From Gonapodya prolifera JEL478 (taxonomy: Eukaryota; Monoblepharomycota; Monoblepharidomycetes; Monoblepharidales; Gonapodyaceae), in contig KQ965767.1 in NCBI GenBank assembly GCA_001574975.1, positions 178,455 to 242,454 of the forward strand: a stretch of DNA of 64,000 bases. Direction: 5' to 3'. Under the pieces are notes generated by a model. It searched no databases. It was not told where the DNA came from and saw only the letters and a program-made list of their open reading frames with translations. Of the stretch, positions 14,289-59,170 are shown in pieces (within the stretch, counting starts at the first letter, position 1; each line of letters starts with the position of its first letter). The translations under genes were made by a program, and so were the position numbers.

Positions 14289-14719
14289 TGCTATCCGTCG
14301 GCTATCCAGTCGTGTTCAGCTTGTTGAAAGTCAGCCCCTTTTAAGCGCCGTTCGGTCTTAGGTACAACTACCCTTTCAGCCACTTTACAAAGGACCGATA
14401 GAAAACGATGTCCCTTCGCACCGCCTGCGCACACGAAACACGACAGGGCGGTTGACCTGGGAACCTCATTGCGAAACGCATCACGCTGAGGCTCGGATGT
14501 AAGCTGTGCCTCGTGCGAGAACTCGCTTCTTTTCTCCTCTGTCCTCACGGTGAGCTATTTGTGGCACACAACTGCTAACAACCGCACTCTTGTCCGCACC
14601 ACTGCTAATCCAGAGGCCGGGGGAAATCAGACAAATCTCAGCATAGATGTATACAACTAACAAAACTCTATGTGCGGTGAGGTGTGGGACTCGGGTGTGG
14701 CGCCTCTCGCCACGCCGGC

Positions 14720-15026
14720 AGGTGGGAAGGGAAGGACGGATATCGCCATTGGAAGCCACGAAGGCAGCACCGGACTTGCTCTCACAGGTTTGCAAGAGAG
14801 GATAGACAAGCACGCGGCGTACTCTTGCAGGTCGGTGAAGGTCATTCAATTTCAAGCAATCCGTTCAGCTGTTCTGGCAGAGATCACCATCCAGCTTAGG
14901 AATCTCAGCTCCTCATATTCTTCAGCTCAAGCGCCAACACGCCCTCGTCGTCACTCCATCGCGGTCCGTCAAGCTACAAGGACGGTGCTCTTCAATGCTC
15001 CATTTATTCGTCCTCCGGCCAGCTGA
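14720..15026 (+). other. Conserved non-assigned block in tandem unit 1
   Basis: About 130 bp here (around 14740-14875) match 16240-16375 in unit 2 at roughly 80 percent. Both include TCTCACAGGTTTGC and GTACTCTTGC. Plus-strand translation of the unit 2 version reads like a helix (EATKGALDFLSQVCERVETN), while unit 1 needs a frame change. It may be the remnant of a second gene in the original unit, or conserved non-coding DNA. Confidence 0.35.
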
Positions 15027-15463
15027 TAAGATATTATTCCTTGGGCTGAGTGGGGGACGAAGTGTTCCTGACGTATAATCTAGAATTTTACATCTAACGC
15101 CGAATGTATTTAGATTTGAGCGACCCGTGTCTTTTCAAAGAATGGAGCTCGAACTATTCGTTGTGATCGTTACTCTAACCCGGAGGGAGCTTTGCCATCT
15201 TGTTTCGGATAAAACAGCCGCCCGCAGGGTTCGCCGAAGAGCTTTGTAAACACTATTTCAATTGAAGGGGAAAGTACAAGGTGTAGCCTGATCAGAGAAA
15301 AAGAAGAGGGTGGGGCCAGTGAGCGTCAGTGAAAGTGCCACGTGTCGGAGGAGGATGTGGAGACGCTCCGACTTGTGTGAACAGAATGGTGCAATGGTTG
15401 ATGCGATTTTCTTCTCTCATACTGCATACACAGGTAGGGCTCAGCCAGTAATGTAAAAAACGC

Positions 15464-15846
15464 TCAAGCACGTAAAGATGGTATCGGCTTGTCATGGGTT
15501 GGGATGAGGTTTTCCATCGCAGTGGGTAGCATGTTGGCAACCTGAGATGCCAGAGTACCAGAGAACATTGAAATAGCTGTAGGTGACACCCTGCGACGCG
15601 ACTTGACAGACGAACCTCTATTTGGTGGGTTCTGTGGAGGTACATAGTGAATGATGAGATAAGAGAGTGGCCCGACACCTGGCCGGGACGAGAGAAAAGA
15701 ACGCTTCAACTCACTGAACCACGCGCGGGACAGCCACCAGCCGGACACACTGGTTGGTCGCCGGCGATATCTTCTCCTTCAATGGGAACTGCGCGCACAA
15801 GACATGCGAAGATCGCGAGGAGAAGTAGGAACGCAAGAAGACGCAT
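15464..15846 (-). CDS. Small secreted protein, copy 2
   Basis: Two exons, 15715-15846 and 15464-15631, give 99 residues. The signal peptide MRLLAFLLLLAIFACLVRA is nearly the same as in copy 1, followed by VPIEGEDIAGDQPVCPAGGC. The second exon (NPPNRGSSVKSRRRVSPTAI and onward) is longer than in copy 1, where the frame ends about 25 codons earlier. The intron has a GTGAGT donor and a CTCCACAG acceptor. The N-terminus and the RGSS-K-RRRV block are conserved between copies while the rest has drifted. Confidence 0.65.
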
Positions 15847-16236
15847 GGCTTTCCAGTCGTGTTTAGGTTGTTCAAAGTTGACCCCTTTTAAGCGCTGCTA
15901 CTACCCTTGCAGCCACTTCGCAATGGCCCGAGAGAAAACCTTTCCTTGGCATACGAAACACGATAGGGTGCCAGAGGTTGCCCTGGAACCTTCCTTGCGA
16001 AACACCACACGGTTTAGATGTAAGTTCTACGCCGTACCTTTGTCGAGAACTCTTTTCTTTGTTTCTTTGCTTTTCATTCAGCTATAAACGCACTTGTGTC
16101 CGTACCACTATCCAAGAGGTGCGGAAAATTTTGCAACGTAGATGTATAATAGCCGAGAAAATTTGATATGCATGAGGAGTACATATGTAGGAGTGGGTGC
16201 AGCTATCGCCACAGGTTAAGGTAGTGTCAGGTGTTG

Positions 16237-16447
16237 ATCTCCATCGATGGATGACGCCATCGAAGCCACGAAGGGAGCACTGGACTTTCTCTCACAGGTT
16301 TGCGAGAGAGTAGAGACCAACACGCGACGTACTCTTGCTCGCCAGTGTAGGTCATTCATTTTCAAGCAATGCGTTTTGTTTATCGACATATACTCAAGCA
16401 CCCACACGCCATCGTGGTCGGCCCACCACGGTCTTTCAAGCTGCTGA
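16237..16447 (+). other. Conserved non-assigned block in tandem unit 2
   Basis: This is the counterpart of the block at 14720-15026. It is open in one plus-strand frame (AIEATKGALDFLSQVCERVE and on, to a stop at 16447) and looks like the end or a fragment of a helical protein. The minus strand is also open here, so coding strand and status are uncertain. No comparable block was found in unit 3. Confidence 0.35.
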
Positions 16448-16941
16448 CCGCGTTTTGGACCTTTCCCTCACCGATTTATTTGCGGCCAAAACGTGAATGT
16501 TGGAGTGTGTTGTAGAAGCGCAAGAGGGAGAGTCAGGACCCTGATCAGATGATAAAGTTCCGTACAACGGAATTTCCTGGACGGAACGTTATAATCATGC
16601 TTCGGATAACGTATCCATTCGCAGGCTTCACAAAATGATGTTTGCTAAGCACGATTCCAATGCAAGGGAACCGGTTGATTCAGGGAAAAGTGCAGCCTGA
16701 TCAGAGCAAAAGAAGAGGGCTGCGCCAGTAAGGGCGATTGAAAGTGGATTTCGAGATGGGCGCGGGGCGGCGGGGTGAACAGAATGACTCGACAGTCAAT
16801 GCAATCTTTTTCTCTCATACATAAGTAACTCTCAGCCAGTCAATGCAAAAAGAGTTCAAGCACGTAAGATAGGATCGGCCTGTCATGGCTTTGGGTTAGA
16901 TTTTTGTTTTCGACCATGGCATTGGTTAAAACGTTCACAAC

Positions 16942-17197
16942 CTAAGATGCCAGATTACCAGAGCGCATTTGAAATGGTTGTAAGACACTCTCGCGACTTC
17001 TACTGGGTGGATACTGTGAAGGTAGTTGACGGGGAGCTAAGGGTCCCCGGAGAGGCGAGCAAGGTGCGCATCAACTTACTTGGCACATGAATCAGGATCC
17101 TGACAAATTGGTACGTTGTAGTAATTTGGATCTCGTCTTTCGATGGGTACGGCGCCGACAACATATGCAAAGGAAGAAGGAATGCAAGAAGACGCAT
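16942..17197 (-). pseudogene. Small secreted protein, copy 3 (frame-shifted)
   Basis: The gene start (MRLLAFLLPLHM) and intron positions match copies 1 and 2: exons 17080-17197 and 16942-17013, donor GTAAGT, acceptor TTCACAG. A short deletion inside the signal-peptide region puts the start out of frame with the rest (VPIERRD...CQDPDSCAK, then YPPSRSRESVLQ). The exon 1 length of 118 nt is not compatible with the frame of the body. It is probably non-functional unless a different start is used. Confidence 0.55.
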
Positions 17198-18120
17198 TGC
17201 TATCCAGTCGTGTTCGGTTTGTTCAAAGTCGATGGCTGTCCTTTTGCCCTTCGGCTCTTAGTGCAAGTATCCCTTCAGCCACTTCAAAATGACATTATGA
17301 CCCGCTAGAAAACTTCGGCCTGATCCCTTCTCCCAAGAAACAAGAAAGGGAAGTTGCCCTGACAGCCTCGACAACCCACCTTGCGTAAAGGCCACACGGT
17401 TTAGAAGTCTAGATGTTTGTGGTACTACGTCGTACGGCATTGAGCTAGCTAATTCGTGGCTCACTGCTAACGAACGCACCCGTGTCCGCACCACCATTAT
17501 TCAAGAGGCGAGGAAGACGTGAAGTGTACACTTGGCAGGGGCCAGGGGGACGCCAATTCAACTTCGCGCCACTGTCCGGCCGGTGTACTCTTGGCGGGAC
17601 ATGCTCGTTACTATTACAAAATGAACTTCGCTTCTATTCTCCCCTCTATCCACTCCGAGCGGTTGTTTGACGTTTGTGTTTAGTGTTGCTTCTGTGGCGC
17701 TTTGATTAGCAATTTGCAGCTGCCGCGACATCACACACACCCATATACAATGAACTATGAGCATACAATGATTAAAACATAAACGGACGTTTTAAAATTA
17801 TCCCAAGTGAATTTAATTTATGGCAGAGGTTGAGGTATTCAGAAGAGTGCTGCTCGCTGCTGCTTAGGTCAGTAATCTGCTCAATTGCCTGTGTATTCCC
17901 AGGAGTGGAGCTCGTAACATTCGCTGTGATTCGCATTCGATAAAGGACGGTTCGGAGGGAAGAAGAAGAATGCATGCATCCGGAGCGTCGCCTCCACATG
18001 TTCTTTAAGACTGTAAAAGAACGGCATTGGTAAATATATTCTTCATAAATTGAATAAGCTTGACTTCGAAGTCAAATGCTATCAGTACAACCCGAGATCA
18101 CACTACATAACTGCTGAATT
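17198..18120. other. Rest of tandem unit 3 and spacer, no gene seen
   Basis: 17200-17470 is the shared upstream region of the secreted-peptide genes. Around 17900-17960 a GGAGCTCGTAACATTCGCTG stretch matches 15146-15165 of unit 2 loosely. The remainder to 18120 is AT-rich and is the likely promoter of the SH3 gene. Confidence 0.4.
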
Positions 18121-31038: not shown

Positions 31039-31822
31039 ATGGCAGCGTCGTCGTCTGCGAGCGTTCTCAGCAGGATTCGGTCCGAGCTCATGTGGTGAGT
31101 CAAGCAAACCGTTCATGTGACCAACCACCTTCAAGCACTCACCCCCAACGCTGGCACGAAGCCCAATTTGCTTGGACTCGTTTTCCGACCCTCGTATTCT
31201 TCCCTGCTCCCACACGTTCTGCTACTGCTGCATCTCTCAGCTCGTCCAATCGAGCAGCCACGAGCCAAACCTGATTTCGGTCCTTCTTGCCGGCGCGCCG
31301 CAAACGATTTCTTGCCCTATATGCAAGAGACAATCTTCCATACCTTATGGCGGCGTGAGCGCCTTGCCCCGCAACCTCCCCGTCAGAGCCATGGTCGACC
31401 TCTTGCAGACGGCACCGCCCCTTTCTGAGATGGCAGGAGGGCAGGGAGCCCAGCGCGTCGGAACACGCGAGGCCCCTGACGATGACTACGAAGTCGCTTC
31501 GGATGACGGAACAGAGTCTTGGACAGACGCTGCGTCCTCCCCTCGCTCTGACACATTCCGGACAAACTCAGCGCCACCCGGTTGCTCCCCTCGGGGCGGA
31601 ACCGCAGGCTCCATGGGATACATGCCCACAACCATGCTTTCGAGGCAGGAGCCCCCGTCCCTCTTCGACAGCGTCTCGACCTTTGTCTCTGAAAACGCTA
31701 CACAAATTGCAACCGTCGCAGCGCTTCTCTTGACAGCGGGAGTGGCAAGCTATGCGGCTAATGCAAGCCGTCAAAGGGACGATGACGCTCGCAAGCGAAG
31801 GGAGAGGGCGCGGGCGGAGTGA
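31039..31822 (+). CDS. RING-finger E3 ligase-like protein with C-terminal membrane anchor
   Basis: Two exons, 31039-31094 and 31162-31822; 238 residues. Splicing at GTGAGT/GCACGAAG joins ELM to CPICLDSFSDPRILPCSHTF, rebuilding the first zinc pair of a C3HC4 RING finger; FCYCCISQLVQ and, ~25 residues later, CPICKRQSSIPYGG complete it. The context (DPRILPCSHTFC) resembles the TRIM/RNF type. A Ser/Asp-rich linker follows, then IATVAALLLTAGVASYAA, a probable tail anchor, and a basic end (RQRDDDARKRRERARAE). This predicts a ubiquitin ligase facing the cytosol from a membrane such as ER or outer mitochondrial membrane. A damaged paralogue lies 1.1 kb downstream. Confidence 0.82.
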
Positions 31823-32957: not shown

Positions 32958-33535
32958 ATGATAGCATCTTCATCTGAAGGCGTTTTCGACAAGCTTTGGT
33001 ACGAACTCAAGTCACGTACTGACCAATTCACTCGCTCAAGAAGCGCAATTTGCCTTGACGCTTTCATCGATCCTCGTATTCTTCCCTGCTCGCACTCATT
33101 CTGTCACGACTGCCTCGCTCAGCTCCTTCGATCGAACAGTCGGAGGCAAGCGAGCTCTAGCTCGAATCCCGCAATCAAATTCCCGCTTTGCAAGAAGCAA
33201 TCTTCCCTTCCTAGTGGAAACGTGAATGTCTTGCCCCGGAACCTGACCGCCCGATCCATTGCGGACCATCTTTGCAAACACCGGTCGGCCTTTCAGAAAT
33301 GGCGCGAGACCGGGAACCTCAACATATCGGAACTGAAGGAGACGTTGATCGTATGTCAACGTAAATGGCTTCAAGGCAGGAGCCTCCGTTCCTCTTTGGT
33401 AGCGTCGCCTTCAAAGTGGTCGCGGTAGGAGGACTTGCTCTGGCGGCGGGAGCCGTGGGCTATGCGGTCGGCGCACGCCAGCAAACGGACATTGATGCTC
33501 ACAGGGAAAGGGAGATGTCGTCGCTCGAGCGCTGA
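32958..33535 (+). pseudogene. Paralogue of the RING-TM gene, degenerate
   Basis: It aligns with the RING gene at 31039: a start MIASSSEGVFDKL, an intron (GTACGA to AGAAG), then CAICLDAFIDPRILPCSHSF, CHDCLAQLLRSN, a C-terminal SRQEPPFLFGSVAFKVVAVG and LALAAGAVGYAVGARQQ. The last zinc pair reads FPLCKKQ instead of CPICKRQ, so one zinc ligand is lost. The acidic linker is mostly gone, and the C-terminal anchor is in a different frame from the RING part, with only a ~25-nt candidate intron between. It probably cannot act as a ligase. Tandem duplication followed by insertion of the TIR element between the copies explains the arrangement. Confidence 0.65.
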
Positions 33536-43363: not shown

Positions 43364-44700
43364 TCAAAGCTGTTCCAAAAGGCCGGCGGCCGTGACAAGG
43401 GCCTCCGACAATCTTTGGATTCCTTTCTTTAATGATACTCCCCTCGCCGCCTTTTCCGCGACATTGTTCGCCGAATCCATTCGAGCCTTTTGCACCTCCA
43501 GCGCACTTGCAGCACCCATCCAATTACTGCCGTGCGCCGAACCCTTCCAGAGCTTCTTCTGTTTGAGCTCCTCAGCAAAGAGCGACAAGAACTTGCCGTC
43601 CTCTTTTACAAGGACTCGCATGATTTCCACCTCTGCTGTCCTGCCATCACAACTTAGTGGTGTGGATGCTCACGGTGGGGTTACAACGACTCCGGTTTCC
43701 ATCTCCATACACTCTGTTTGAGTCGATGTTGAGTTCTTGGGGATGTTCAGCCGTGCGCGAAGATGGCGGTTGAGTGTCGTTGTTTTGAGAAGCAATATTA
43801 GCCGTGCGTTCGGGCATCTTGCCACCGCGTTGACATGCCAGTCTGTACATTATCGAGTCCGATTGCCACTTGTCAGACTTGTCCAAGGCCTTGGCTGCTT
43901 CATTGATGGCCATCTTTGTAACGACATCGCAAGTCTTGGCGCGCTTCGTGGGGGAACGTTTCGATAAGAGGACCAATTTCAAAGCAACTTGCTGCGATAG
44001 AAGTTTCGTTCGGACTGCTTCGATCCCATTACGGGCTTCATTAAGTTCGCTTTCGAGCTTTGTGGCCAAAAAATCATGACGGCCACGTCGAAGCTTTCCA
44101 AATCGTACGAACCAGAACATTCTTTTCGCATTCTCTTTCAAGGCTATCCGCGATGCTGATTTCCTGAGCCCCTTGATGCTGCAAGGTCTGCCTCGATCCC
44201 GAACACCTTGCACCTGAAGGTTTACGATAGTTTCGTTACAGTGTTGAGCGTGAACAGAAACGTGCTCCAAAGCTGCGGCTTGACAGGCGAACATGTCGAC
44301 GAGATCGCTATGCGCCAAAATGGTGTCCTGTAACCGTTCTTCAAGCTAAGGTTGGAAAGGGTGTGAGGCTCTGAGGGGTTCTTACGTCAACAAATAGATG
44401 TCACAAACCTCTTGATTGGTGCTACATTTCTTCTCGAGCAGTTCAACGGTCTTTTTCAGCTCAAGACTCTCCGCTCCGAGTTGATCGTGCAACATAGCCG
44501 TCTTTTTTGACACATCGTCGAGTTCCTCCTGCTTGCAGTGAGCAAGCGCCGAAAGATATTTTCAGGGCGATTGATTGGCGGCGACAGCTAATGGCCAAGT
44601 TGTGATGAGCGTTGTGGTACTGGCGGAGCTGAACCCGGAGCTTCATAAGCAAGGTACGTGTTATACGGACCGGTTTGTGCTGAATGAGGACTAGTCGTTT
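43364..44700 (-). CDS. Tandem coiled-coil/LWKG-tail family, copy 1 (minus)
   Basis: Read leftward: a coiled-coil exon (LHDQLGAESLELKKTVELLE, ending before GTTTGT), then LEERLQDTILAHSDLVDMFA and HCNETIVNLQVQGVRDRG with further basic/helical sequence to RSRCNPT, a 45-nt intron (GTGAGC to ACAGAG), then VEIMRVLVKEDGKFLSLFAE and ELKQKKLWKGSAHGSNWMGA, ending at 43364. The KEDGKF...ELKxKxLWKGSxHGxxW tail is shared with copies 2, 4 and 5. The N-terminal half is more diverged than in the others. The 5' end, perhaps up to 45031, is unresolved. No known domain recognised. Confidence 0.5.
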
Positions 44701-45287
44701 TTTAGACCGGGGTGCATTCAGTGCGAGCCAGAGCACAATGGTTCGGGACCGGGCATGGAGGAAGAGATTGAAGAGGTGGTCGTCCGAGGCGATTGACCTC
44801 GTGCGGATCACGTGAACTTGCACTTGTGAACGTTGAGAATTTGGTGAATTTGCCCATTGCGCTCCTCGAGATGGGGAGTGACTGACCGCAAAGAGAGTCG
44901 GGCAGCCGCCAGTCAGGGAGTCCATTGCCGGAGGAATGAACCCGGGAAACGAGGGGAGGGAGGATGGAGTGAGGATCGCAGGTGGTGCGGGCACTCATGA
45001 ATGGTTCATGACAGTTTAAAACGTTGACCAATATTTGCTTCTACGCTTTTTGCATGCTATCATGAGGTCCCTGCATCGGTTATACGACGACTTCCGGGAT
45101 GCGTGAGAAGAGATGAAGATTTTACTTGCAGCCAAAAGGTGAAACACTCGGAGCAATACATCGATATAATTCTCAAGTTTCGTATACGTCCCTCGTTGCG
45201 CTGTCGACACAAGTCCAATATGACTCGCGATGTTCCACAACCGCGCGCCGTCGCAACATCAACGGACCACAGCCCAAAAACCACCAT

Positions 45288-46700
45288 TCACCGCTCGCGA
45301 TCCCTCCCACCGACCGCGCTCGACGTCGACGTCGCGGGTACCAGCCTCCACCCCTTTGCCCGTTTCCACTGCTTGCCATGCTCCGAACCCTTCCAAAGCT
45401 CCTTCCGCTTGAGCTCGGCAACAAGGATCGGTGCGAGTTTCCCGTTCTCCTTGATGAGGGTCCGTATGGCGGCGCCTTCGCTCCCAGCTACGACGTCGAT
45501 GTGCAGGTGATTCAGATTTGGGTACCGACAACGCCAAGGAAACGGTCCTGCAAACACTCACACACCACAGCCTCCAAGCGAGCAAGTTTCTGATGCTTCT
45601 TCAAAAGGTCGGACATGGCTGCGTCGATATGACGCAAGGTGGGCATGCTGGCTAAAAGTATTGTCCCTGTATTCAGCTCTTCCAGAATGACCGTATAGGG
45701 GCGATACCCTATACTTTGTGGTGCATTCGCCACGGTGTGAGGGACATTTCCCAAGGTCCCGCGTTTGGATGTTGGTTCAGGGGGTGCAACATTATTGCTG
45801 CTGCTACGACGGCGTTGTGAGATTTGGTCCGCTTTGGTGTTCGAGTCCCCCCTCTTCGTAGTCTGGCCGTGACCGCTTGGCGCGCCGTTGTACAGGAACG
45901 TCGTCTTCGCTTTTTTTGTCCTCTTCATCGTCCAAGCCCGTCTCTTCAGAGACCGGATTCGGTCTCTTCCTACGCGGTCCACGCTGCACTTGCGCGTCTT
46001 CATCCTCCTCATGATCGTCTCCGCGGTCGGATCCCTCCTCTGCCCCGTGCGAGACATCTTCCAAGTTGGTAGGCTGAAGGGACGTTTCTCCCACTCCCAG
46101 CCTGGATCGCTTCGTGCTCGGGCTAGCCGATGCTGGAGGTGCCGGTGCCCGCATCGAAATCCGTTGCTTGTGCTTATTGGCGGCATAAATAAGTCTTGCA
46201 AAGGACGTTCGCACTGCGGCAAGTGACGCCTCAACATCGCGGGCGACCGAAATCAGCACGGCGGTTTCCTCCAGCTCGGAGCTCAAGGATTCGCTCGAGG
46301 CGGCTCGAGTCTCGCAGTTGGCATCTCGTAGAGTGGCAGCTGAGCGAGCCATTTTCATTGTGATGGCAACAACAATGCTCGTGACAGATTCGTGCTGTGT
46401 GCGATTGTTGCGTGTTCGTGAAATCCGAAGCAACTCTGACGTCTCTATGGCGTGCTTCTCAATCTTGCTGTGCTCGGCCAGAGCATGGTTTTTCAACATA
46501 TTTTTCTTTTGAGCTGCCACTCCATCTCGGCGGCAGCGGCTTGCGCTTCCCACTCCTCGAGTTCTTTGCGGCGTCGAGCTTCCTTCTCGGCCTGCATCGC
46601 CTCGTAGCGCTTCAGGGATCCACGAGCCTCCCATCGCAGCTTTTCTTCAAGGTTGGTCTCGTCTTCGCCGGGTGGATCCGACGCTGGAAAGGGCTGTGGT
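45288..46700 (-). CDS. Tandem coiled-coil/LWKG-tail family, copy 2 (minus)
   Basis: It begins near 46700 with DETNLEEKLRWEARGSLKRY, then EAMQAEKEARRRKELEEWEA, a coiled coil. KNHALAEHSKIEKHAIETSE follows in a frame one base away (at an A run near 46505). The second module is RSAATLRDANCETRAASSES and AVLISVARDVEASLAAVRTS. A charged nuclear-type stretch follows (RRAKRSRPDYEEGGLE). Then come GYRPYTVILEELNTGTILLA and LLKKHQKLARLEAVVCE. The last exon has AAIRTLIKENGKLAPILVAE and LKRKELWKGSEHGKQWKRAK, ending at 45288. This copy shows all modules of the family. One homopolymer shift may be decay or error. Confidence 0.55.
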
Positions 46701-47180
46701 GGAGGGAGTTATTGTTGCGGTGCGCAATGAAGGGGGAATCTGCTTCAGTTCCAGGGGAAAGCGGATACAAGAGTTGACACTCCGCCCACCGCCAGTGTGT
46801 TCATGGTCACGCGAATGTGATTCCCTGCGTTTCTGCTGGGGCAACGTTTCCAACACCGGCAAGACTACTAATTTAGCCCGAGACCACACTGTGTGCCCCA
46901 CTGACACAATATCCCCTGCGCGGACCCGGCTCTCCTCCAAGCGTCCCTCCACCCACTGTCCACCGCCTTGTATGCATGGAGCTCTAACACCGAGTCGTGC
47001 TGTCCTGGAAACAGGGAAACACCTTGGTGACGTCGAGAGCGCTTTGCAGTTTGGACAATGCGGTGAAGCAGGGCAAGAGAAGCTTGAAAAGGCATGGAGC
47101 GGAATTCACTATATAGGAGGCAAAAATATGTTATAGAAACAAACAAAAATTACAGGTAAAACGGGCCAGCTACATCCAGC

Positions 47181-48368
47181 CGACCACCATGAAAGTCTGG
47201 TTCAGCCCAGGAGTGACGTACATACAAAGGAGCGATCCGAATTACTGTCACAAGCTTGACGATCCTCGGTACCGTACGGTTTCGTAGCATCTCAATCAAG
47301 AAAAGCTGCATATCGTTCTTCACTGTAACGACTGATTTCCAACAATATAGGCTCATCTGCTTTGGTAGTGGTAGCAGTCCCTGTGATGGTTCGCGGACGC
47401 TTTGTATGCCGTTCTTTAGGCTTCTCCACCTCGTCATGCCCTTCAGAGCTTCGGACGCAATCGTTTTCGTCGTCCGAGCCCTCCTTTTCGTTGTCTCCTG
47501 ATTCCTCGTCGCCACGCGATCCCTCCCTATCGTGATCCGTGCGTTTCTGGTGATCAATGACCTGGTCATGGGATCCGTGGGACGTTGAAGCTGTTCTAGG
47601 GATCCGTGGGACGTTGAAGCTGTTCTGTATCGCTTCTTACTGACTGCATCGTCCCGCACCAGCGAAGTAGGTGACGAGGACGGTGTAATCCGTAAACTGT
47701 GCTTATCGGCAACACGCGCGAGCTCGAATAATCCGCACGAGCTGTGCATGGTGGTAAGCGATGCCTCAAAGTCACGGGCAGCCGCAATCAGCTCGACACA
47801 GTCCTCGACCTCCCAGCGGTACACTTCAGCCTCGGCAGCTTCGTCGGTGCAGCCGGCATCCTGAAGGCATATCATAGTGGTGATTAGTTGGGTTGCGATA
47901 TAGTCTAAAGGCTGGGACACGTTCAAATATAAACATTGGTTAGCTTCGACACTGCGAACATCCCGCGGACAACTACGGATATCCTCACCGCAAGGCGAAC
48001 TGTCTCTCGGGATCCTTTGACTCCTTTTGCCTTCTCTGCAACATTCCTTGCTGCAAGCGCGAGTTCCAACGACCGCTCTTTCACTCGCCGATGCGACTCC
48101 GTCCTCTCCCTCACGAGTGTTCGAACCCCAGCGTGCTCGCGAATCGCATAGCCCTCGAGCGCCTGCCTTTTCTGCTGCCATTCCACCTCCGCCTCAGCAG
48201 CTTGCGCTTCCAACTCCTCCAATTGTCTGCGACGAGCCTCCTTCTCCACCTGCATGGCCTCATAACGCTTGAGAGACTCGATGGTCTCTCGTCGAAGCGT
48301 TCCTTCAAGTTCGGTCTCATCTTCGTCGGGCGAATCAGAAGCAGGGTCGCACTGTGGTGTGGATGCAT
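47181..48368 (-). CDS. Tandem coiled-coil family, copy 3 (minus), with an internal 29-bp duplication
   Basis: The N-terminal exon is clean: DETELEGTLRRETIESLKRY, EAMQVEKEARRRQLEELEAQ, AAEAEVEWQQKRQALEGYAI, SLELALAARNVAEKAKGVKG. After an intron comes DAGCTDEAAEAEVYRWEVED, CVELIAAARDFEASLTTMHS, then the charged region with KKRYRTAS. A 29-bp tandem duplication at 47570-47627 then shifts the frame; beyond it, acidic and KKR-type sequence continues in another frame. The LWKG tail is not visible here. It is probably expressed truncated, or is a pseudogene downstream of the duplication. Confidence 0.5.
47570..47627. repeat. 29-bp perfect tandem duplication inside copy 3
   Basis: Two adjacent copies of a 29-bp unit starting GGGATCCGTGGGACGTTGAA, at 47570-47598 and 47599-47627 (last base differs). 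The length is not a multiple of three, so it changes the reading frame of the host gene. Confidence 0.9.
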
Positions 48369-49017
48369 ATGGCGTGTGATGTTGAAGATTTACCTTCGAT
48401 TCTCGCGGAAACGGCGTATGCGCACCGATTTTCGACGCACCACTAGCGTGTCTGTGCTCATGTGAGTGGAATTCCCGAGTGTTTGGCCAGAGCTGGGAAT
48501 CAAGTGATTGAGAGAATCGACCGAAGGCTTAATCCCCGATTTTAACCGGCGTCAACGTGCTCATCGACTGTGAACCATTCATTGTGAGATCGCTAAGGTT
48601 GGATGTGGGACTTGGCTTATCGTGAGTGTAATTTAAGAGGTGATGTGTATGCTAAGCATGCCAAAAAGGATCAGTATGACTGCAAGAGACAGCAGTGGTG
48701 GGCGGATCCGAGAGAAAATTTGGGGAAAGCGACGATGTAGTTCCGGTGTGTGGTTGACTATTCTGTTGTGGCTCGGCGAAGAGTGCATCGACATTCACAT
48801 GTTGCACTGTATCGCTGTATCACACCCGCCCTTCCATTGTTACTGCTCAAAATGAGAGCTGGTTATATGGAATGTATGCACGTGTATTTTATCGTGCCTG
48901 ATTCTTTAAAAGTTGTAGTGAAAAGTCGAAGACAAATTGCCAAACAAAGCTAATCTTGAAATCACGCGAGCAAAATGTCGGGATTCCTCCCCGACGTAGG
49001 ATATGACGTGCACGGAA
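48369..49017. other. Spacer between family copies 3 and 4
   Basis: No open frame with features. It would hold the promoter of copy 3 and the 3' flank of copy 4. Confidence 0.4.
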
Positions 49018-49425
49018 CTATTCGACCAAGAGCAGCTCCGGCGTTTCACCCTGTTGATATTCTATGGTGCGAGGTTTACGATGATCCAGTTCGGTACCGT
49101 TGATATTCCCGGTCTCAATTGAACGATTTTTCCATTTCTTTCCGTGTGCGGAACCCTTCCACAGCTCCTTCCGCTTAAGTTCTGCCACAAAAAGTGGTAA
49201 AAAATCCCCGTTCTCCTTCATGAGGTTGGTGTGTCCCTTCAACCCACTTCTACGAAGCGTGCACTGTGCGGATCCATTGGTTGTATCAATTAGGTACCGA
49301 CAAGTTCGCGACTATGTCTCTGGAACTCACAGAATATCTCCGCGCTAGATAGATCCTTGTGAAGTTGCCTTATGTTCGCCAAGGCATGTCTAATACAGGT
49401 CATGGGAGGGTCGATGGTGAGGCGT
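49018..49425 (-). CDS. Tandem coiled-coil/LWKG-tail family, copy 4 (minus), 3' fragment
   Basis: Two recognisable pieces only. MTCIRHALANIRQLHKDLSS (before a GTGAGT donor) corresponds to the RHIDAAMSDLLKKHQKLARL block of copy 2. NLMKENGDFLPLFVAELKRK and ELWKGSAHGKKWKNRS form the family tail, ending at 49018 after a unique ~35-residue end (ELDHRKPRTIEYQQGETPEL). The N-terminal modules are absent; their place is taken by the CHFR-like gene, which starts only 17 bp to the right on the other strand. So this is probably a truncated copy. Confidence 0.5.
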
Positions 49426-49441
49426 CGATTGTGGTTCGGAA

Positions 49442-51297
49442 ATGAAATCCAGAGTGGCCGCTGGAGTTACAAATTCCGCCTTACCCACTCTCCGCTCCTC
49501 TCCTATCGGAGAGGCTCACCCGAAACTTCACTTTCCCGACAATAAGAAAATTTCAACAGTCCATTTCAAACTCACCAGAGACACATCGAGCAAAGCCGTT
49601 CGCGCTGCAATCGCTGGGAGCTAACCCGACGTATGTAAATCACTAGAAGCTCGCAAAGGGGTCTGTCCGAATCTTGCGCGACGGTGGTCTTATTGCCCTC
49701 GCAAAGAAAGGGGACTCCACGTTCCCGCACTACGTATTCAGACTTGCAGGGGGTAGTGGACCTTCGACACCAAGCGGGAAACGTCCGTTGGATGACGGTG
49801 GGCTGGTTTCACCAAGTGGCTCCGGTGCCGATGCGAAGAGGCAGAAAGTTGATGACACCGGAGGAGCCTCCACTTCGACAAGCAAGGATGCGGAAGATGA
49901 AGAGATGGACCTCATGTGTAGTGAGTCTCTGTGCCATGTCTCAATCGAGAGGTGTTGAACCAACTTATGGGATTGTTTTAGCTATCTGCCACGATATCTA
50001 CTTTCAGTCGGTAAACTGCAATCCCTGCAATCACAATTTCACTGTGAGCTCCGTTTTTGATATTTCATGTCCGTATTCTCGCAATAAACGGAATGAGTCG
50101 CCATAGAACGCCTGCTTCTCCGCACTACTTCACCCTCGAAACCAAGGTGCCGTTCCACCTCCAACCCCATCATCCTCGGCGAAATACTTACGGGTACCTT
50201 GCCCTACCTGTCGTACTATGGTGACAAATGTTGGTCGCGATCACACCCTCCAAACGTTTTGCGGAGCGATTTGTGGCGAAGCATGCGGATAAGGCGAGGT
50301 CCAAAAGACGAGGAAGACGATATGATCAAAAGAGGACTGATTGGTTCTGGCGAGGTGAGTCTTTACGTTCGATAGTTTCTCAATCATTCACAACCGCAAA
50401 CAGTATGATCCGGCAGCTTCGACTTGTCAAAGCTGCTGAAGATGACGAATCAGATGGATCGTATGAAAGTGCTGAAGAAGAAGAGGAAGAGGATGACGAT
50501 GGCCGAACTATCAGTGTCTTTTGTGCGATCTCAACAATGGCACAGGGTTCATATGCACTCCAATAACGCAGGCGCACTCTACTTGTCAAAAGCGTTGGCG
50601 AAGATTTCCTGTGAGAGACAGCGCTGAGGCCAAGAAAAGTCAATGTGAGAGCCGCATTTTCTTTTGCGATTTGCTCAAAACAAACGGTTGCATTTGTTCT
50701 GCTTCCAGGCAGTGTATATTTTCAGCGGTTCTGCTGTTACACCCTTCCTGGCGGCTGCACCAATCCCACTTGCGAAACGGACTACAAAATGATCGGGGAT
50801 CACGATTTCGTAAGTTGAAGATACCGCTCCATCCACTACATCAATCTGTCACAAGCCAATGCACCGAATTTCACAGACTGTCTGTTGCCGCCCTCGTTTG
50901 GATTCAACCTTACCGAACAACAACTTCTGTCATCATATCTGACGGCCACCAACCAATCCATCACGGACGTCTACAAGACATTCTCCCTAAATATCTGAAC
51001 GCCGAGTACGTCGGTGTGGCCGCCAACCCACCCCTACCAGCTGGTCCACAGCTGCCGTCTGCGTACTCCTACACGTGCAAACCTTGCTCAAACCGTCTGC
51101 TTTCGGGCATGGTTTACGAATACCGCAAAAACATCGACATGCGACCTTTTTAGGCGCCCTACCGCAAGACATGCGCGACAGATTTGAGAAGAGAGGGGAC
51201 TGATGGTACGGTTGGCAGTGTCGAACGCAACCGAAAGCGACCAACGGAGCGTTTGAATCACATTTGTGAGAACACCTCGACAGCAAAAAGGACTTGA
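49442..51297 (+). pseudogene. CHFR: CHFR-like FHA-RING mitotic checkpoint ubiquitin ligase, decayed
   Basis: Parts of CHFR appear in order. FHA domain: SSPIGEAHPKLHFPDNKKIS, TVHFKLTRDTSS, then NPTYVNH, a TAG, KLAKGSVRILRDGGLIALAK and FPHYVFRL. RING: MCTICHDIYFQSVNCNPCNH spliced to ACFSALLHPRN and VPCPTCRTMVTNVGRDHTLQ. A FVAKHADKARSK block matches the HPDKSR region of human CHFR. An acidic linker follows, then the Cys-rich C-terminus: RFCCYTLPGGCTNPTCETDY, LTEQQLLSSYLTATNQSITD, YTCKPCSNRLLSGMVYEYRK, NIDMRPF, and finally YGWQCRTQPKATNGAF and NHICENT. Breaks: a frame change plus TAG in the FHA domain, extra bases in T and A runs near 50260 and 50305, a frame change near 51000, and a TGA where CHFR has Cys in the WYG-CRT block. 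CHFR delays mitotic entry under spindle stress. Confidence 0.72.
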
Positions 51298-51378
51298 ATT
51301 TGCAGTCATCATCATGGCATATGTAGCTCATAATACATTATCTCAGAGACAAACAGGACCCTCTTTGATCACTTTGCT

Positions 51379-54174
51379 TCAGATGCTTCCCAGGCCGGTA
51401 CCAGTCCCCCACTTCCAGAGAGTGCCACCCAGCTCCAATGATCCACCATAGCTTCCGAGACCGGGAACAACGACGTACTTGAGAACGACAACGGGAGTGA
51501 AGGCGAATAAAAGCACGAAGAACGTTAGTGCGAGACAGATCCAACCAAACATCTCGCCCCATGCGGCGTAAGGAGTTCGAACGTGTGGTTTAATGGGAAT
51601 GATTGCTTCAGCTGTTGAACCGATCAAAGTCTTCAGAACCGCGAAAGGAGCATTTTCAGTCTTTCGATCTTCGCTTTCGATATCCTGCTCGAAATGAACT
51701 CACATATGCGTGGAAGTAACGTTCTCCCCACGGTCCGACAGCTTGAGAGTATCCGTTGTTGCAACGGAGGTTCGTGAAGCCGTTCGCAATGGATGGGATT
51801 GTGTCCATTTCCGAAGTGAACTGGTGAATCGTACCTGAAAGAAAGAGGAAGAGTCTGGTCAAAAAAAAGAAAAAAAGAAATCCATCCAGATAAGGTCTTT
51901 TCGCTCACTCCATGTGTACGAGGGCTGGTGTTTGGGAAGAAGTCAGCAAATAGTTTTCGATCGAGACACATGTGGTGCAGCTCGTACCTCCAGGAAGAGA
52001 TCCACACCGGCGGCACCCGCTTGTTGCGGGACGTCATCGAAGCCTTTGCAAACGTTAAAAATCGCTCAATGATGGTGTTTCGGTTTCAGCGGCTCTGCAG
52101 TGACTTACTCAAATCGAAACAAATTGCACCAGACACTTTCATAGTCTTGGAACTTCCCGGAATCTGCACATCCGCAATCTTCGCAGATGGGTCACCCGCT
52201 TGGACATTCCACTCGACTGCCGGTACGGGATGAGACTTGTAATACGAAAAGGCGATACTTCCGTCAGGGTTAATGAGCGTCAGCTTGTTGAAGTCCAGCG
52301 GCGGATTCGTGAGCCCTCCAGCGGGGAGACCATATGCAACGCGGTCCGCTTCATTGCACTTGCGACAGAGCCCTCGGTCGGCCAGGTAAGCGATGCCGAG
52401 GAGCATCTTGTACTTCTTTGCGATGGCGATGGACCTGTTCAAAAGCGCCTGTTCGTCCGCTGCTCCGATCGTGCGAGCTGCCGTTTCGCTCCACAGGACG
52501 AGCTGGGCGCCGCGCTGGGCGAGCGTCTCGGTGGAGTTGAAGATCCATTCGTGGGTCATCCAGCCTGGAGTGAACGAGTTGGGAATGGAGGTCGCTTCGT
52601 TGTTGATGACGCAGCCGACGTGGAGGCGGGGGTAAGAGTCTTCCATTGCTTCTTGATCATTTTCTAGGCGATAGTAGGTATCGTGAGAATCGTATCGGCG
52701 GTATTCGAGTTCGTGCGACTTACGGAAAAGGTTTCCATTGAATGTCTCAATTCTAGCAGCACCATAGGTCAAGACGACGAACAGGTAGATGGCGAACACA
52801 AACGCAACACGGTATGAGCGGCGGGGAGCTCCGACTTCCGTTGGCGCCGCATGCTTGTTTCCGGATGCGGATCCGTGCCCGACGAGTTCAAGTGAGATCA
52901 TTGCAGATGTTGATCCAAGAGCGTTGGTGGAGCTTGTGTTGAACTCAGATTTGGTTTCAGGAGAGCGTGGCCCAGAAACTTTTGTTCCAGACTTGGAAAT
53001 GACAGGAACCCAGACGCTGTCGAGAAGAAGGGCTGCGACAATGCTCGCGCCCCAGCTGACGGTGAAGGTAATGCCAGACAGACCGAAGAAAGAAACGAAG
53101 TGCAACAGCGGAGTGATGGCGTACTGCGATACTCCCGGGTTTTGGTGGTGACCAAGTGGAGCAATTCGGTTGTAGAGTGCCCAAATTCCTGCGTTCGCGA
53201 GGGGATATACGAGACTGAGGAGGATAGAATCGCTTGCGGGGGCGATGCGCGAGTTTGTCGCTAGGGCGTGGTTGAGTTGAGCAGTGAATCGACGGCGATA
53301 AAAGGCAGCGTCCACTGAGAGGGGGAACATCATGAAAATGACGAACAGGTTTGAGAACACGAATGTGATTATGAACGACGTGGTTTGCCAGTATGGTGGC
53401 TTGTGTAGAAACAGAAGATGTTTGATGATTTATGAACGTGATGGATGTACGAGGAAAAGACCGAGGAGAGATTATATGTACATGTAAAAGGCGGTGTAGT
53501 CGTCAGAACCTATGAACCGCGAGGGACACTACGAACAGCTTTTCACTCACGTGGACATTCAGCATGCCAACGTAACAGAGCCAGGTACCAAAGAGCGTAG
53601 TGATATAAAGAGGAATCCATGTGGCGTACATGCGTCCTGTTCCTTCAAGACACGAGACTGGATGGCCATCTCTCTTCCGAGCCGAATCCCACACGGCGCG
53701 GGCTTGAACGCTCTTGCGAACCCAGAAGATCGAAGCGGCATAGAGAATCCAGACAAGAGGAGCGATAACCTGCAAGCCAGGTCCGAAGAAGGCAAGGAAA
53801 AACACAACAACGAAAAGTGCGCTCTGCCACCACGCGGGGAGTCCAGGGAATCGGTGGGCAGTGCGACCAGATTCAGTGGACATGTTGTAAACGAGAACTT
53901 GAGCTGCTGCAGCGGAGCTTGCTAGCACTGTCAAGATATCGTCAACGAACGTGTCGCTGGAACAACAGCAACCGAGTAACCGACGACTCACTTTGAAAGG
54001 GTGATATGATCGGTTGAAAATGAATCCTTGAGCTGCGATTTGAGCTTCGAATCGTGGCTGCGAAGGTGGGGCTAAGACGTCGCCTGAAGCATTGTTCGGT
54101 TTCCCCCAGACCACGGCATGCTGACTGAAGTGAGTCAACATTATTGAGTTAACGTGACGCTGACGCTGATTCAT
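51379..54174 (-). CDS. Lnt-like membrane carbon-nitrogen hydrolase (apolipoprotein N-acyltransferase-related)
   Basis: A multi-exon minus-strand gene whose splice joins all hold. An N-terminal part with several TM helices (SALFVVVFFLAFFGPGLQVI, WIPLYITTLFGTWLCYVGML, FIITFVFSNLFVIFMMFPLS, FVSFFGLSGITFTVSWGASI, VAFVFAIYLFVVLTYGA) precedes a nitrilase-fold domain. Its triad is visible: Glu in AQLVLWSETAART, Lys in FSYYKSHPVPAVEW and Cys in KVSGAICFD. The downstream TIPSIANGFTNLRCNNGYSQ and AVGPWGERYF fit the family, and a final TM helix (MFGWICLALTFFVLLFAF) ends at 51379. This is the architecture of bacterial Lnt, which N-acylates lipoproteins; fungal relatives exist but their substrates are unclear. 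The Met at 53883 (MSTESGRTAHRF) may be the real start; 54174 is the first. Confidence 0.85.
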
Positions 54175-54516
54175 TATATCTTCTTAAAGAGAACGAAATC
54201 TAAAAGTGGGAAGAAATACCTTCCATTTTTAACCTTCCTTTCACTTACACATCGTAATACAGGACTTCAACTTCTCATTCGTTATAATCTTTAGCTCAAA
54301 TTTGAAGCCGAAGAATGAATTTTGGACACTTACTGCACGGCTAAAATGGAGTCCTTTGTTCATGGGTTCTGCCGGATGAGTCAGCTTGAAAGGCCATACC
54401 CGATGGATACCGACGAGTTGGACACTGGCACCGAGATATCTGCCCCCATCAAGATGTGTGGTGCTGTGGTGGGTCGAGAGTGGCTGCCGTACCGATATTC
54501 CCTTTGGTTTTGATCC
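54175..54516. other. Spacer between the Lnt-like gene and family copy 5
   Basis: Divergent promoter region; AT-rich at 54180-54320. A short frame at 54322-54513 has no features. Confidence 0.4.
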
Positions 54517-55900
54517 ATGACGTGTTCCCAGTCACAACAACAAAGGTCCTCCTCTTCCGCTGATCCGTCCCAGGATACACCCGAAATGCTCGATTCTCTT
54601 CGAAGGAGCATTTGGGAAGCGATTGAGCAACTGAGGCTCACCCAGGCCGACAACAAATCTCTGCGTCATCAACTACAAGTATCACAAGCGCGCGTTGCAG
54701 ACTCGGCGCTACCTTGCGACAGGCGCAGGATGCACTCAAAGGTTTGGCTCTTCAGGAGCATGTCCGGGTCCGAAACCTCACGAATGTCATAATTGAGGAG
54801 CAGCCAGAACCGAAGGAAACGTCAGTGGATCTCGCCAGTGCTATTGCAAAAACTGTCACCAAAATAAAGAAAAACGAACAGGCGCTTGCGTCATTCAAGG
54901 TGATGTAAGTTTGCGTACTGGCTGGGGCGCCACGCGGTGTTGGGAACGTTGTTGCCCCAGGCCACACCTCACTGTATTTCTATCCGATCCAATGCCAGCG
55001 ACCGCTCGATTCCATCAACGTGGAAATAGCAAGTGCGGTGGAGTGTATATGTGAAGTCGGCTGCCATGATGAAGCCGCAGAACTTGAAGCTGCGGCTTTT
55101 GGGATATCGGAGGCAGTAAAGCTGATTGCAGCTGCCCGGGTGTGCCAGGAGAGATTTGAAGAGTTTCGTGGGATTCTCTACGCGCGCATTGTCACTGCAC
55201 ACAAGCACAACAGCGCACAGCGAGAGCCGCAGGACACCACCATCTCACGCAGCGATCCAGCAGGTGTGCAACCTGCAGAAGTTGACCAGCCAGATGTGGG
55301 TACTGAGGACCAGGAATCAGCACGAAGGTCTAAGAGAAAGAGACGGAACAGTCCTGCTGCAGGTGTGAACGCAACGGCACGTGGAATACCCACCGTAAAA
55401 GAGCAAGCTCCAGCTGGATCTCGCTACTACCATGATCTTATGGAAGAGTTGAACCCAGGGATACTGGAAATGGCCCCGCGACAAACAAAAATCAACATAC
55501 GTGTCGTCATGAGCAATACCAACAAGTATAATCAAAAGCCTCCAAGCACAAGATTGCATGAGTGAGTTGGAAAACCTTTTCTGGCTCTGGGGTTCTGCAA
55601 CATTGACCACGTCGTTACGTAAATGGTGCAGGGGTGAACAACCGAGCGCATATCCCACCAGGCGGGCGCGTTATACATGATCTCGTCAAGAGTTTGAAGT
55701 CGAAGGGCCTCTGGAGGGGTGCTGAGTTTGGTCAAAATTGGAAGGCCAATCGGCAGTTACTGCGGACCGCTGAGAAGAAACAAAGGATCGACTTGCCTGA
55801 AACATGGGCGCGGGCTCACACTTCCCCTGTTCGACCGGGAAATTTAGTTGTGGTTTGGAATCTTTGGATTTTGCAGAAATTCGATCGCACATTGCCGTTC
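54517..55900 (+). CDS. Tandem coiled-coil/LWKG-tail family, copy 5 (plus)
   Basis: First module: MLDSLRRSIWEAIEQLRLTQ, ADNKSLRHQLQVSQARVADS, then (one base out of frame) LRQAQDALKGLALQEHVRVR, a coiled coil. Second module: VEIASAVECICEVGCHDEAA, ELEAAAFGISEAVKLIAAAR, matching DEAAEAE...ELIAAARD of copies 3 and 6. A charged SKRKRR region follows, then RYYHDLMEELNPGILEMA, the counterpart of YRPYTVILEELN. After an intron comes the tail RVIHDLVKSLKSKGLWRGAE, FGQNWKANRQLLRTAEKK. The order of modules is the same as in copy 2. One apparent frame change near 54710. Confidence 0.5.
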
Positions 55901-56121
55901 AGTCTCAAACATAGGGACCAAAGCAGAAACTCAGTTTTGAGATATACATAGTGAAGACTAAACGTCAATGTTCGATACCACTGCGTGCTTGCAGGCAAGC
56001 ATTTCGGCCAATCTTCGTAATTTTGCCACGCCCCCCTTTCAACGACTTTCAACGATGATTACCGCGCAGAGGGACATGAACTCCGGAGAACACACTCCCA
56101 TGAACATAACACGCTGGTGGT

Positions 56122-57290
56122 ATGCTCAGCGGTGATCCGCCTTTGCGTTTTCCGCGAAAATGGAAGTCTGACTCACTCGCACATCCACAGTCTGCTCCTG
56201 TTACGGATCCATTCGAAGAATCGGAGATCGAGCTTGAGGAGAAGCTGCGACGGGAGGAACAGGAAGCCTTGAAGCGATACGAGGCCACGCAGGCAGACAA
56301 GGAAGCGCGTCGCAGACAGCGGAGTTGGAAGCACAAGCCGTTGAGGCAGAGGTCGAATGGCAGAGGAAAACGAAAGCCCTCAAGGATCATGCATGCACTT
56401 CGCGAGCACGCAAGGGTTCAAAAACTCGCCAACGAAACGTCCGAATCCCAGCGGATAGCCAGAGAGTGTTTCGTGGAGCTAGCACTTGCGGCGAAGAATT
56501 TTGTGGAGAAGGCCGGGAGAGGCAAACGAGCTGGAGATACTATTACACTTGTGGTAAGGATATACTTCGTTGCTGTTCGTGATAACCCATAAACTCCCGC
56601 ATGCCTAACATGTCATATCGGGACAACGTACCCCAGCCTTTCGACACCATCACATCCCAACTATCCAATGCCATGAACAGGCTTCGGGAAGTCTGCTGCG
56701 AGGACGAAGCTGCCGAAGCTGAAGCGTCTCTATTGGAGGTCAAAGGGGGCCGTTCCGAGATGTACTCTGCTACCCGCGACTGCGAGGAATCACTTCCTGC
56801 AGCTGGCACGATCTTCGCAAGCCTTGCTAATACCTCCGGCGAGAACGATATACGGACTGCCAAGGAGTCGTCTCCAGTGCTGCCGGTGCAAACGGACGTT
56901 CTCAGCAAGAAGCGATCCAGACAGGGTTCAATTCATCGTGGACTCCCTTGTGAATGTCTTGAACACACTAAAGCCTCACATGGCGCACATTATGGATCAG
57001 GCAATGAGGAGGAGGACCTAGCTCGCGCAGAAAAGGAGGACTTGTACCACGAAGAGGCTGATCCTTTGCAACACCAGTCCCTCAAGCGTCGACGACCAGA
57101 CGATGAAGGGGCGCACTCGGATGGGGTCGAGGCCGAGCAACCTGCAAACCTTCACGCTTCCACAATTACCTAGCGGCGAGATTGATGCCGTGGGGTCGAC
57201 TGGAGCACCGACTGTGGTGAGCATCTCTCCCAAAGAAACACATCATCCTGCTGATTTCGCTTACTTTTAGGATATTCTGGAAGAAGTGAG
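56122..57290 (+). CDS. Tandem coiled-coil family, copy 6 (plus)
   Basis: First exon: EESEIELEEKLRREEQEALK, RYEATQADKEARRRQ, then LEAQAVEAEVEWQRKTKALK one base away, then ALREHARVQKLANETSESQR and CFVELALAAKNFVEKAGRG back in the first frame, so two compensating shifts flank a ~100-nt stretch. Second exon: FDTITSQLSNAMNRLREVCC, EDEAAEAEASLLEVKGGRSE, ATRDCEESLPAAGTIFASLA, then SKKRSRQGS and an acidic-basic end (QHQSLKRRRPDDEGAHSDG). A short DILEEV piece near 57280 is the start of the next module; the rest and the LWKG tail are missing. Probably truncated or decaying. Confidence 0.5.
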
Positions 57291-57894
57291 TTTCTGGATC
57301 AGTAAACTCAACACGCCCCTTCACTAAAGCAATCTGGCGGGCAAGTCTTTCGTAACACGAACCAGGAGTTGACAGCGCAATGATCAAGGATGTGGTGCGT
57401 GTTTGCAAAGCCACGTTTGCTTTCTTTTTGGTGACAAAACTATAACTCGCGGCCGTCCGTATAACATGATAGGCAAATCTCTGTCGCCATTTATGCACTC
57501 ATCGAGGTCATATTCCAGTCACCACTGAAACGTCATACCCTACACCTTAATGTATAAATATTTGAACATGCATCCCTCATGGTTTTGATGTTTCGGAACA
57601 GCCCGCGATCCTCTATGCGGCTCTCCTCACTGTCACAAGGATTCACAAATACGCAGTCAATCATGATGAAACATTTTGCACACACAATCTGGATCGTACC
57701 AAAAGTGACTTCTGCGTTGTACCGTGGTCACTCACGTGAAAAACTACAACTATGATACGCACCCAAAGCGACGCAAACACGGGGAACGCTGCTCGCATGA
57801 GTATAAGCACACTGACGGTGCGTTCAGAGCTGACCCCCGTTTGCTTTTTCCACGAGAATCGAAGGTCCATTGGTCCTAACATTCCTGATCGTGA
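57291..57894. other. Spacer between family copies 6 and 7
   Basis: AT-rich, no gene seen. It likely holds the promoter of copy 7. Confidence 0.4.
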
Positions 57895-59170
57895 ATGTCT
57901 GCTCTGCAGTACTCAGACCCACCTTTGGATCCGCCCCAAGACGATGATACCGACCTTGAAGAGAAGCTACGACGGGTGGCGCAAGAATCTTTCAAGCGAT
58001 TCAAGGCCATTCAGGCGACAAAGGAAGCGCGCCTCAAACAGCTCGAGGAGTTGGAAGCACAAGCCGCTGCTGCAGAGATCGAATGGCAGAACAAGAAGGA
58101 CACGTTGAAAAATCATACTCTTTCCGTGCATACCAAGGTTGAGAAGCTCGCTCTTGAGACGTCAGAGTCGCTTCGACTTGCCAAGGAACGGTCGATGGAA
58201 CTTGCCCTTGCCGCGAAGAATATTATGGAGAAAACAGATAATGAGCTCATAATGGACTCATTGAACCTCGAGGTCAGTGTGTGCTTGTGCCTTGGTATTC
58301 AGTCACGTTTTGGGCTGATAGAAAATGCTTCATTGTTCAGCAGAAGCAGTCCTACACAACCACCGTTTCGACTATCACATCAAGAATCGCCCGCTCAGCT
58401 GCTCGTCTACGGGATGTCAACTGCGAGGACGTTGCTGCCGCTGCCAAATCCTTGTCGTCGGAGCTCGAGGAAAGCGCAGATGTTATCGCAGCGGGATAGG
58501 AATGCGAGGCGTCGCTCGCCACAGTTGCAGAAGGCCTTTCCAGACTCTGCTATATTGTTGACAAGCAACGCTCACGAGTTGCAGCGAAAATGCTGAAGAT
58601 TAAGGTGACATCCAGCAAAATTGACGAGAACGGCACTCAAATTATGGAAGGGATGAATAGGGATCGCACGTCCAAGAGCAGAACTCTGACGACGAGATGA
58701 ATGAATCTCCACAACGACCCTCAAAGCGTCCACTTCCACGTGAGGAGGTGAGGAGGAATGCAGTGCAAATGTCCAGCAAGGAGGGAAACCTTCACAAACC
58801 GACGTCGTAACTTTGCCTAAGTGACAGCTATACCAGCTGGATTTCGGCCCTACAAAGACATTCTTGAAGAGTTGAATCCAGCGATAGTTACACTTGCCCA
58901 AAGACAAGTTTGTTCGCTTTGGAGTCCAAGTCCACGCTCTCCCAAGACACATTTGGATCGCCCTTTCCGGCAACTTTCCTGCTCTTGGGGTCAGATGAAT
59001 TGTGCGAGGCCGATACGGCCACGAGTCGGCCCCGTGCCCGTTTCGGGAGGTCGTCAAGTTGCGCATCCCTGGCGTCCTATACATCCGAACCGGAATCGTC
59101 GAGGAGTTCGCCGACGTCGAGCGTTCCCGACGTCATGTCTGCGTTCGCGTTATCGGCGGACATTGTGTGG
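57895..59170 (+). CDS. Tandem coiled-coil family, copy 7 (plus)
   Basis: The cleanest N-terminal exon of the family: MSALQYSDPPLDPPQDDDTD, LEEKLRRVAQESFKRFKAIQ, KEARLKQLEELEAQAAAAEI, EWQNKKDTLKNHTLSVHTKV, ETSESLRLAKERSMELALAA, KNIMEK, all in one frame. Second module: TTTVSTITSRIARSAARLRD, VNCEDVAAAAKSLSSELEES, ADVIAAG, then a TAG in that frame and ECEASLATVAEGLSRLCYIV beyond it. PAGFRPYKDILEELNPAIVT follows at 58830-58890. Past this point the frames diverge and no LWKG tail is visible. The coiled-coil exon probably marks the ancestral protein start. Confidence 0.5.

What the first reader, a model, noticed from the sequence alone, without database searches (positions are those of the whole stretch)
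43364..59170. An unrecognised coiled-coil gene family in at least seven copies, arranged as a mirrored array around a CHFR-Lnt core
Four copies (43.4, 45.3, 47.2 and 49.0 kb) are all on the minus strand to the left of the CHFR-like and Lnt-like genes; three (54.5, 56.1 and 57.9 kb) are all on the plus strand to the right. All read away from the core. They share ordered modules: coiled coil (LEEKLRR..SLKRYEA..KEARRRQLEELEAQA), helix block (EDEAAEAE..ELIAAARD.EASL), a KKRSR-type charged region, YRPYKDILEELNP, and the tail KENGKL...AELKRKELWKGSEHGKQW. I match none of these to a named domain. The symmetry suggests repeated inverted or bidirectional duplication, and the variable decay of the copies suggests birth-and-death evolution, as seen for self/non-self or pathogen-interaction genes. 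The function part is inference.
Basis: partly seen in the sequence, partly recalled or inferred. Interest (0 to 1): 0.82.

Follow-up and report, generated by a model that had tools for sequence, protein, structure and literature searches.

The report
Orphan fungal gene array, once inverted
A water fungus carries a small gene family that our searches found nowhere else, and the odd mirror layout of its copies probably comes from one stretch of DNA having flipped, which cut two genes in half.

Summary
The family is real. The window is contig C37 of Gonapodya prolifera JEL478, a zoosporic fungus. Copies share DNA, recurring exon boundaries and old purifying selection. Matches in the genome lie at three loci: this window, contig C83 (four copies and a remnant) and one intact gene on C15. 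Three searches of 5.8 billion proteins returned only this strain; Pfam and PDB gave no relative.

The mirror is probably not inverted duplication. C83 carries a related array in one orientation; three window copies have 1:1 partners there (support 99-100). The window segment 49.4-58.9 kb looks inverted once, cutting a gene at each end. Piece D (tail only) begins 3-8 residues after copy G (no tail) stops. An FHA (CHFR-like) gene is likewise cut: its 3' half lies beside D, its 5' half, on the other strand, beside G. So seven pieces are probably six genes, none intact by my reading.

The intact product: a 106-residue helix, a helical block, a disordered charged linker with basic patches, a small helical C-terminal module. 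A nuclear helical adaptor is my best guess; function is untested. Against: D's tail is nearest other copies' tails, and no uncut FHA gene was seen.

The parts
43505..43621 (-). Copy A: last exon only (LWKG tail), 94% identical in DNA to the last tail of C83 copy a
45366..46924 (-). Copy B: all modules, but a frameshift near 46498 and about 137 nt missing next to 46425 compared with its C83 partner
47391..48503 (-). Copy C: N-terminal exons, long helix, helix block and part of the linker; C-terminal module not found. Contained in the public model M427DRAFT_70488 (P0002)
49126..49394 (-). Piece D: end of exon 3 plus last exon only, no stop or frameshift; read as the 3' end of gene G left behind by the inversion
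49395..49520 (.). Left inversion junction (somewhere within): D piece against FHA-gene 3' half
49502..49800 (+). 3' half of an FHA (CHFR-like) gene; FHA profile positions 14-66, E=0.0016, below curated cut-off; broken by a frame change and a stop
52089..53429 (-). Lnt-like gene, main ORF (CN_hydrolase, sub-threshold); one match in the genome
54526..55747 (+). Copy E: most divergent copy, all modules, two frameshifts in my alignment
56055..57291 (+). Copy F: long helix and helix block, four frameshifts in my alignment, RPY module degenerate, tail not found. The public model M427DRAFT_70490 (P0003) fuses parts of E and F
57752..58911 (+). Copy G: head of a gene up to the RPY module (P0001 residue 347-352), two in-frame stops and three frameshifts
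58897..58912 (.). Right inversion junction: end of G against end of FHA-gene 5' half
58897..59163 (-). 5' half of an FHA (CHFR-like) gene, one stop; 93% identical over 267 nt to C29
41657..42310 (+). RING-finger gene exon (zf-C3HC4) that borders the array on both C37 and C83

Best explanation
A gene family known, in these searches, only from Gonapodya prolifera JEL478. A single gene like the intact one on C15 was multiplied head to tail beside a RING gene. That array existed before C37 and C83 separated, by segmental duplication or as two haplotypes. In C37 one inversion of about 9.5 kb, with one break inside copy G and one inside an FHA gene, turned G, F, E, the Lnt-like gene and most of the FHA gene round, giving the mirror. 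The window copies then decayed, or were already decaying. Function, inferred only: a nuclear, helix-rich adaptor that associates through its long helix and helix block, enters the nucleus by the basic patches of its linker, and binds a partner with its small C-terminal helical module.
For: Family and exon layout. Three loci, by five protein queries from the modules. C83 colinear and inverted to the window up to the array, 85.3% identity over 51 kb of alignments above 300 bits. C83 array in one orientation, with partners B-b83 100, C-c83 100, G-g83 99 support. G's own DNA ends at P0001 residue 347-352, D starts at 356; on C83 the g head and tail are 179 bp apart on one strand. FHA halves: the 3' half aligns to CHFR from chain position 35 and the 5' half, ending KLVFG, has a relative on C29. 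No inverted repeat at the ends better than E=0.12. Purifying selection: exon 2 dN/dS 0.14-0.86 in 41 of 45 pairs that could be computed. Structure.
Against: D's tail is most like c83 (79%) and B or b83 (75-76%), less like g83 (72%), so sequence alone does not tie D to G. My aligner run on G alone carried G to residue 369, 14 past D's start; I set that end aside because the DNA beyond 58897 matches the FHA gene. The joined G+D scores 516-520, less than the two alone added (409+138), with frameshifts at the seam, so joining gains nothing by score. The FHA label is sub-threshold and the C29 relative reads N after the break, so no uncut FHA gene was seen. C29 and window share nothing upstream of the start codon. 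The C83 array breaks off before the core, so the uninverted right end is not seen. Model pTM is 0.33 with no structural relative. Heptad signal absent.
Confidence: 0.7

Rival explanations
1. The mirror arose by inverted or bidirectional duplication; D and G are independently truncated copies.
For: Copies on the two sides are 68-76% alike in inverted orientation. D's tail is closer to c83 and B than to g83. Joining G and D gains no alignment score.
Against: It does not explain why D begins 3-8 residues after G stops, nor why an FHA gene is split at the same two places. C83 has g in the same orientation as a, b and c. B, C and G are each closest to a C83 copy, not to a copy on the other side of the core.
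Confidence: 0.11
2. The inversion is an assembly error, the true order being like that of C83.
For: Only one assembly is held; paralogous repeats can mislead assemblers. Piece D carries no damage.
Against: Three of the four halves (G and both FHA halves) carry stops or frame changes away from the seam, and the ends share no inverted repeat; a misjoin of working genes would leave intact halves.
Confidence: 0.09
3. The family derives from a mobile element or virus, and the arrays are relics of insertions.
For: C83 74-80 kb, beyond the array, is rich in repeats; virus-like genes have been reported in this fungus (PMC5294986, passages only).
Against: Tandem genes with recurring exon boundaries and purifying selection; no relative in viral contigs by one C-terminal pattern and no viral structure at E<=0.001; only three loci.
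Confidence: 0.06
4. Fast-turnover recognition genes (self/non-self or antiparasite).
For: Copy content and decay differ between C37 and C83.
Against: dN/dS stays below 1 in every pair computed but one, the linker of B-b83 at 1.06; no known recognition, repeat or signalling domain.
Confidence: 0.08

Closest known systems
Gonapodya prolifera hypothetical proteins M427DRAFT_54295, _70488, _70490 (P0001-P0003)
   Same: They are members: the C15 gene, a model over copy C, and a fused model of E and F
   Different: Public name is only 'hypothetical protein'; the three locus tags are in no held paper
Lineage-specific (orphan) tandem gene families in general
   Same: Confined to one strain in the searches made, tandem, with intact and broken copies
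   Different: Rearranged by an inversion that appears to cut two genes
CHFR FHA domain (PDB 1lgp, 1lgq)
   Same: 3' half aligns to chain positions 35-96
   Different: E=0.13-0.14 only; gene broken; concerns the neighbour, not the family

Membership tests
Any Pfam-A family | A member reaches a curated cut-off | tested here: not met
   P0001's 408-aa form and a conceptual E, P0002 and P0003, 7 C-terminal modules: none over a cut-off; best was Sec23_helical, E 0.048, in 1 of 7
Coiled-coil proteins | Heptad repeat of hydrophobic residues in the long helix | tested here: inconclusive
   Period 3.5 over residues 40-145, P=0.47; period 3.6, P=0.10, 2000 shuffles; some 28-residue windows favour one heptad position; a helix is predicted with confidence
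A fold already in the PDB | Clear structural match | tested here: inconclusive
Single inversion | Two genes cut, halves exchanged at the two ends | tested here: met
   G/D and the FHA gene; FHA label sub-threshold, no uncut FHA gene seen
Single inversion | An uninverted relative in one orientation | tested here: inconclusive
   C83 array is unidirectional and has g head and tail adjacent, but it ends before the core
Birth-and-death gene family | Copies of different age, some intact, some broken, differences between related loci | tested here: met
   0 of 6 window genes intact by my alignment; C15 intact; b83 open over residues 35-418; C83 has a long copy a where the window keeps a tail
Nuclear protein | Nuclear localisation | not testable with these tools
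   Basic patches such as RRAKRQRPN recur; that they resemble NLS motifs is recalled

The most novel reading that the evidence does not exclude
A new protein family with a new small C-terminal module (RPYxDILEELNPG...LWKG, tandemly doubled in one C83 copy) that serves a fast-changing recognition or genome-defence role in zoosporic fungi, with the array itself a hot spot of rearrangement.
Probability: 0.08. Interest if true: 0.65.

Novelty: new member of a known kind. Interest (0 to 1): 0.33.

Why it matters
It gives a worked case of how a mirror-image gene array can come from one inversion rather than inverted duplication, readable because both breaks lie inside genes. It also puts on record a family confined, in these searches, to one strain of an early-diverging fungus, with one intact copy to study.

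Tried and rejected
Pfam, PDB sequence and structure searches of the intact protein and of the C-terminal module gave nothing convincing. Syntaxin-1A hits of the module profile (E 1.8-2.9) and Sec23_helical in 1 of 7 members (E 0.048) were treated as chance. A full diploid assembly was considered for C37/C83: an RPB1 domain was found at four places, and the Lnt-like gene, window 59.4-63.9 kb and the C15 neighbourhood have no second copy apart from repeats and family members among the candidates scored, so either a segmental duplication or a locally kept second haplotype remains. Joining G and D as proof of the inversion was rejected: the joined score is below the sum of the parts. The first protein search scored only the 7996 candidates sharing most words and the profile search 7990; the third, restricted to residues 325-423, had 29 candidates and found only P0001. 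A search for papers with Gonapodya, diploid and heterozygosity found none.

Full report
What the window is. The window is C37:178455-242454 of a 47.6-Mb, 207-contig genome. Homologous proteins, two of them on a contig of C37's exact length, are named Gonapodya prolifera JEL478, classed in Monoblepharidomycetes. A genome paper reports sequencing of this strain (PMC4494064, passages read).

The family. A self-comparison of the window shows the copies as DNA repeats, same-strand on each side and inverted across the core. I modelled the C15 copy by eye as a four-exon gene. The public model P0001 (423 aa) contains my 408-aa version entire, with 15 more residues at its start. Aligning P0001 to each locus with an intron-aware aligner of my own gave recurring exon boundaries, plus extra introns in the linker of some copies. 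Frameshifts reported by that aligner can be mistaken introns, so the list of damage is approximate. By it, 0 of 6 window genes is intact: A is one exon; B has a frameshift and a 137-nt gap against its partner; C runs open to residue 312 but lacks the C-terminal module; G has two stops and three frameshifts; F four frameshifts and no tail; E two frameshifts. Piece D has neither stop nor frameshift.

Other copies. Five module queries over the whole genome gave matches that look real only on C37, C83 and C15; single weak hits on C3 (E=0.57) and C123 (E=0.14) were dropped. C83 has a (full length, one frameshift, C-terminal module present twice), b (no stop or frameshift over residues 35-418), c (two stops, three frameshifts), g (internal part missing) and a stretch like the end of F in front of g.

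Selection. By a Nei-Gojobori count, exon-2 dN/dS was 0.14-0.86 for the 41 of 45 pairs that could be computed; the other 4 were saturated. Without E it was 0.14-0.61. In the helix block it was 0.15-0.79 for 32 of 36 pairs. The recent pairs tend to be less constrained: B-b83 0.36, 0.33, 1.06, 0.63, 0.18 over five segments, C-c83 0.36, 0.71, 0.35 over three, G-g83 0.61 over one. So the family coded for protein over long times, and constraint has loosened in the arrays.

Where the mirror comes from. C83 126.5-88.0 kb matches window 1.1-48.5 kb in order and inverted, at 75-96% per aligned stretch, one 0.5-kb stretch being turned round within it; with further C37 sequence the block runs on to C83 155 kb, 85.3% over 51 kb of alignments above 300 bits. 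The long match stops at the array, and C83 74-80 kb is rich in repeats. On C83 all copies read the same way. A tree of 10 copies pairs B-b83 (100), C-c83 (100) and G-g83 (99). Yet G is on the opposite strand from B and C in the window. D holds P0001 residues 356-420 only; G's own DNA ends at residue 347-352. My aligner, run on G alone, carried it on to residue 369, but the DNA past 58897 is that of the FHA gene. On C83 the g head (to 87377) and tail (from 87556) lie 179 bp apart on one strand. At the other side of each break lies half of an FHA gene: 3' half on plus from about 49.5 kb, 5' half on minus at 59163-58897, against the end of G. The 5' half has a 93% relative on C29 over 267 nt, which continues FGRGDG and then reads N. 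The 3' half aligns to CHFR from chain position 35; that this is just past the motif in question is my reading. One inversion with breaks in G and in the FHA gene yields these two junctions. Undone, the order is RING, A, B, C, G, F, E, Lnt, FHA, all copies on one strand.

Results against. D's tail resembles c83 (79%) and B/b83 (75-76%) more than g83 (72%); the stretch is about 100 nt and g83 is itself broken, but this does not favour the model. Joining G and D gives 516-520, below the 547 of the two alone, with frameshifts at the seam. C29 and the window share no sequence upstream of the start codon. FHA and CN_hydrolase scores lie below curated cut-offs. I saw no uncut FHA gene.

In print. The three locus tags are in no held paper. 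Seven papers hold both 'Gonapodya' and 'coiled-coil'; I saw only the listing, whose titles do not concern this family.

Verdict. A real family, strain-specific in these searches; the headline layout is best explained by an ordinary rearrangement; function open.

Noticed in passing
window 13696-17509: Three diverged tandem stretches (66-78% identical, up to 1.1 kb); the longest reading frame listed there is 166 aa.
   Followed up: partly
window 31155-31404 and 33037-33272: Two copies of a 250-bp stretch, 69% identical.
   Followed up: no
L009 5843-5918 (C15): A short stretch of about 75 bp recurs at 33 other places among the 41 matches listed, 69-92% identical; only 40 of 79 candidates were scored.
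   Followed up: no
L019 about 8570-8810 (C83 78.6 kb): A 240-bp element with 38 near-full-length matches at 94-98% elsewhere in the genome, of 66 matches listed; a lower bound.
   Followed up: no
G000:C196:13924-14442: An RPB1-type domain in a 1494-aa open frame; could be foreign. A paper reports virus-like DNA polymerase in this fungus (PMC5294986, passages).
   Followed up: no
G000:C37:138001-227000 and C83:87000-155430: Large colinear duplicated block or second haplotype, about 85% identical, 51 kb of alignments.
   Followed up: partly
window 54.5-57.2 kb: Public gene model M427DRAFT_70490 joins parts of copies E and F.
   Followed up: yes
L011 2940-3700 (C83 96.9-97.7 kb): Copy a carries the C-terminal module twice in a row, so the module behaves as a unit.
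   Followed up: partly
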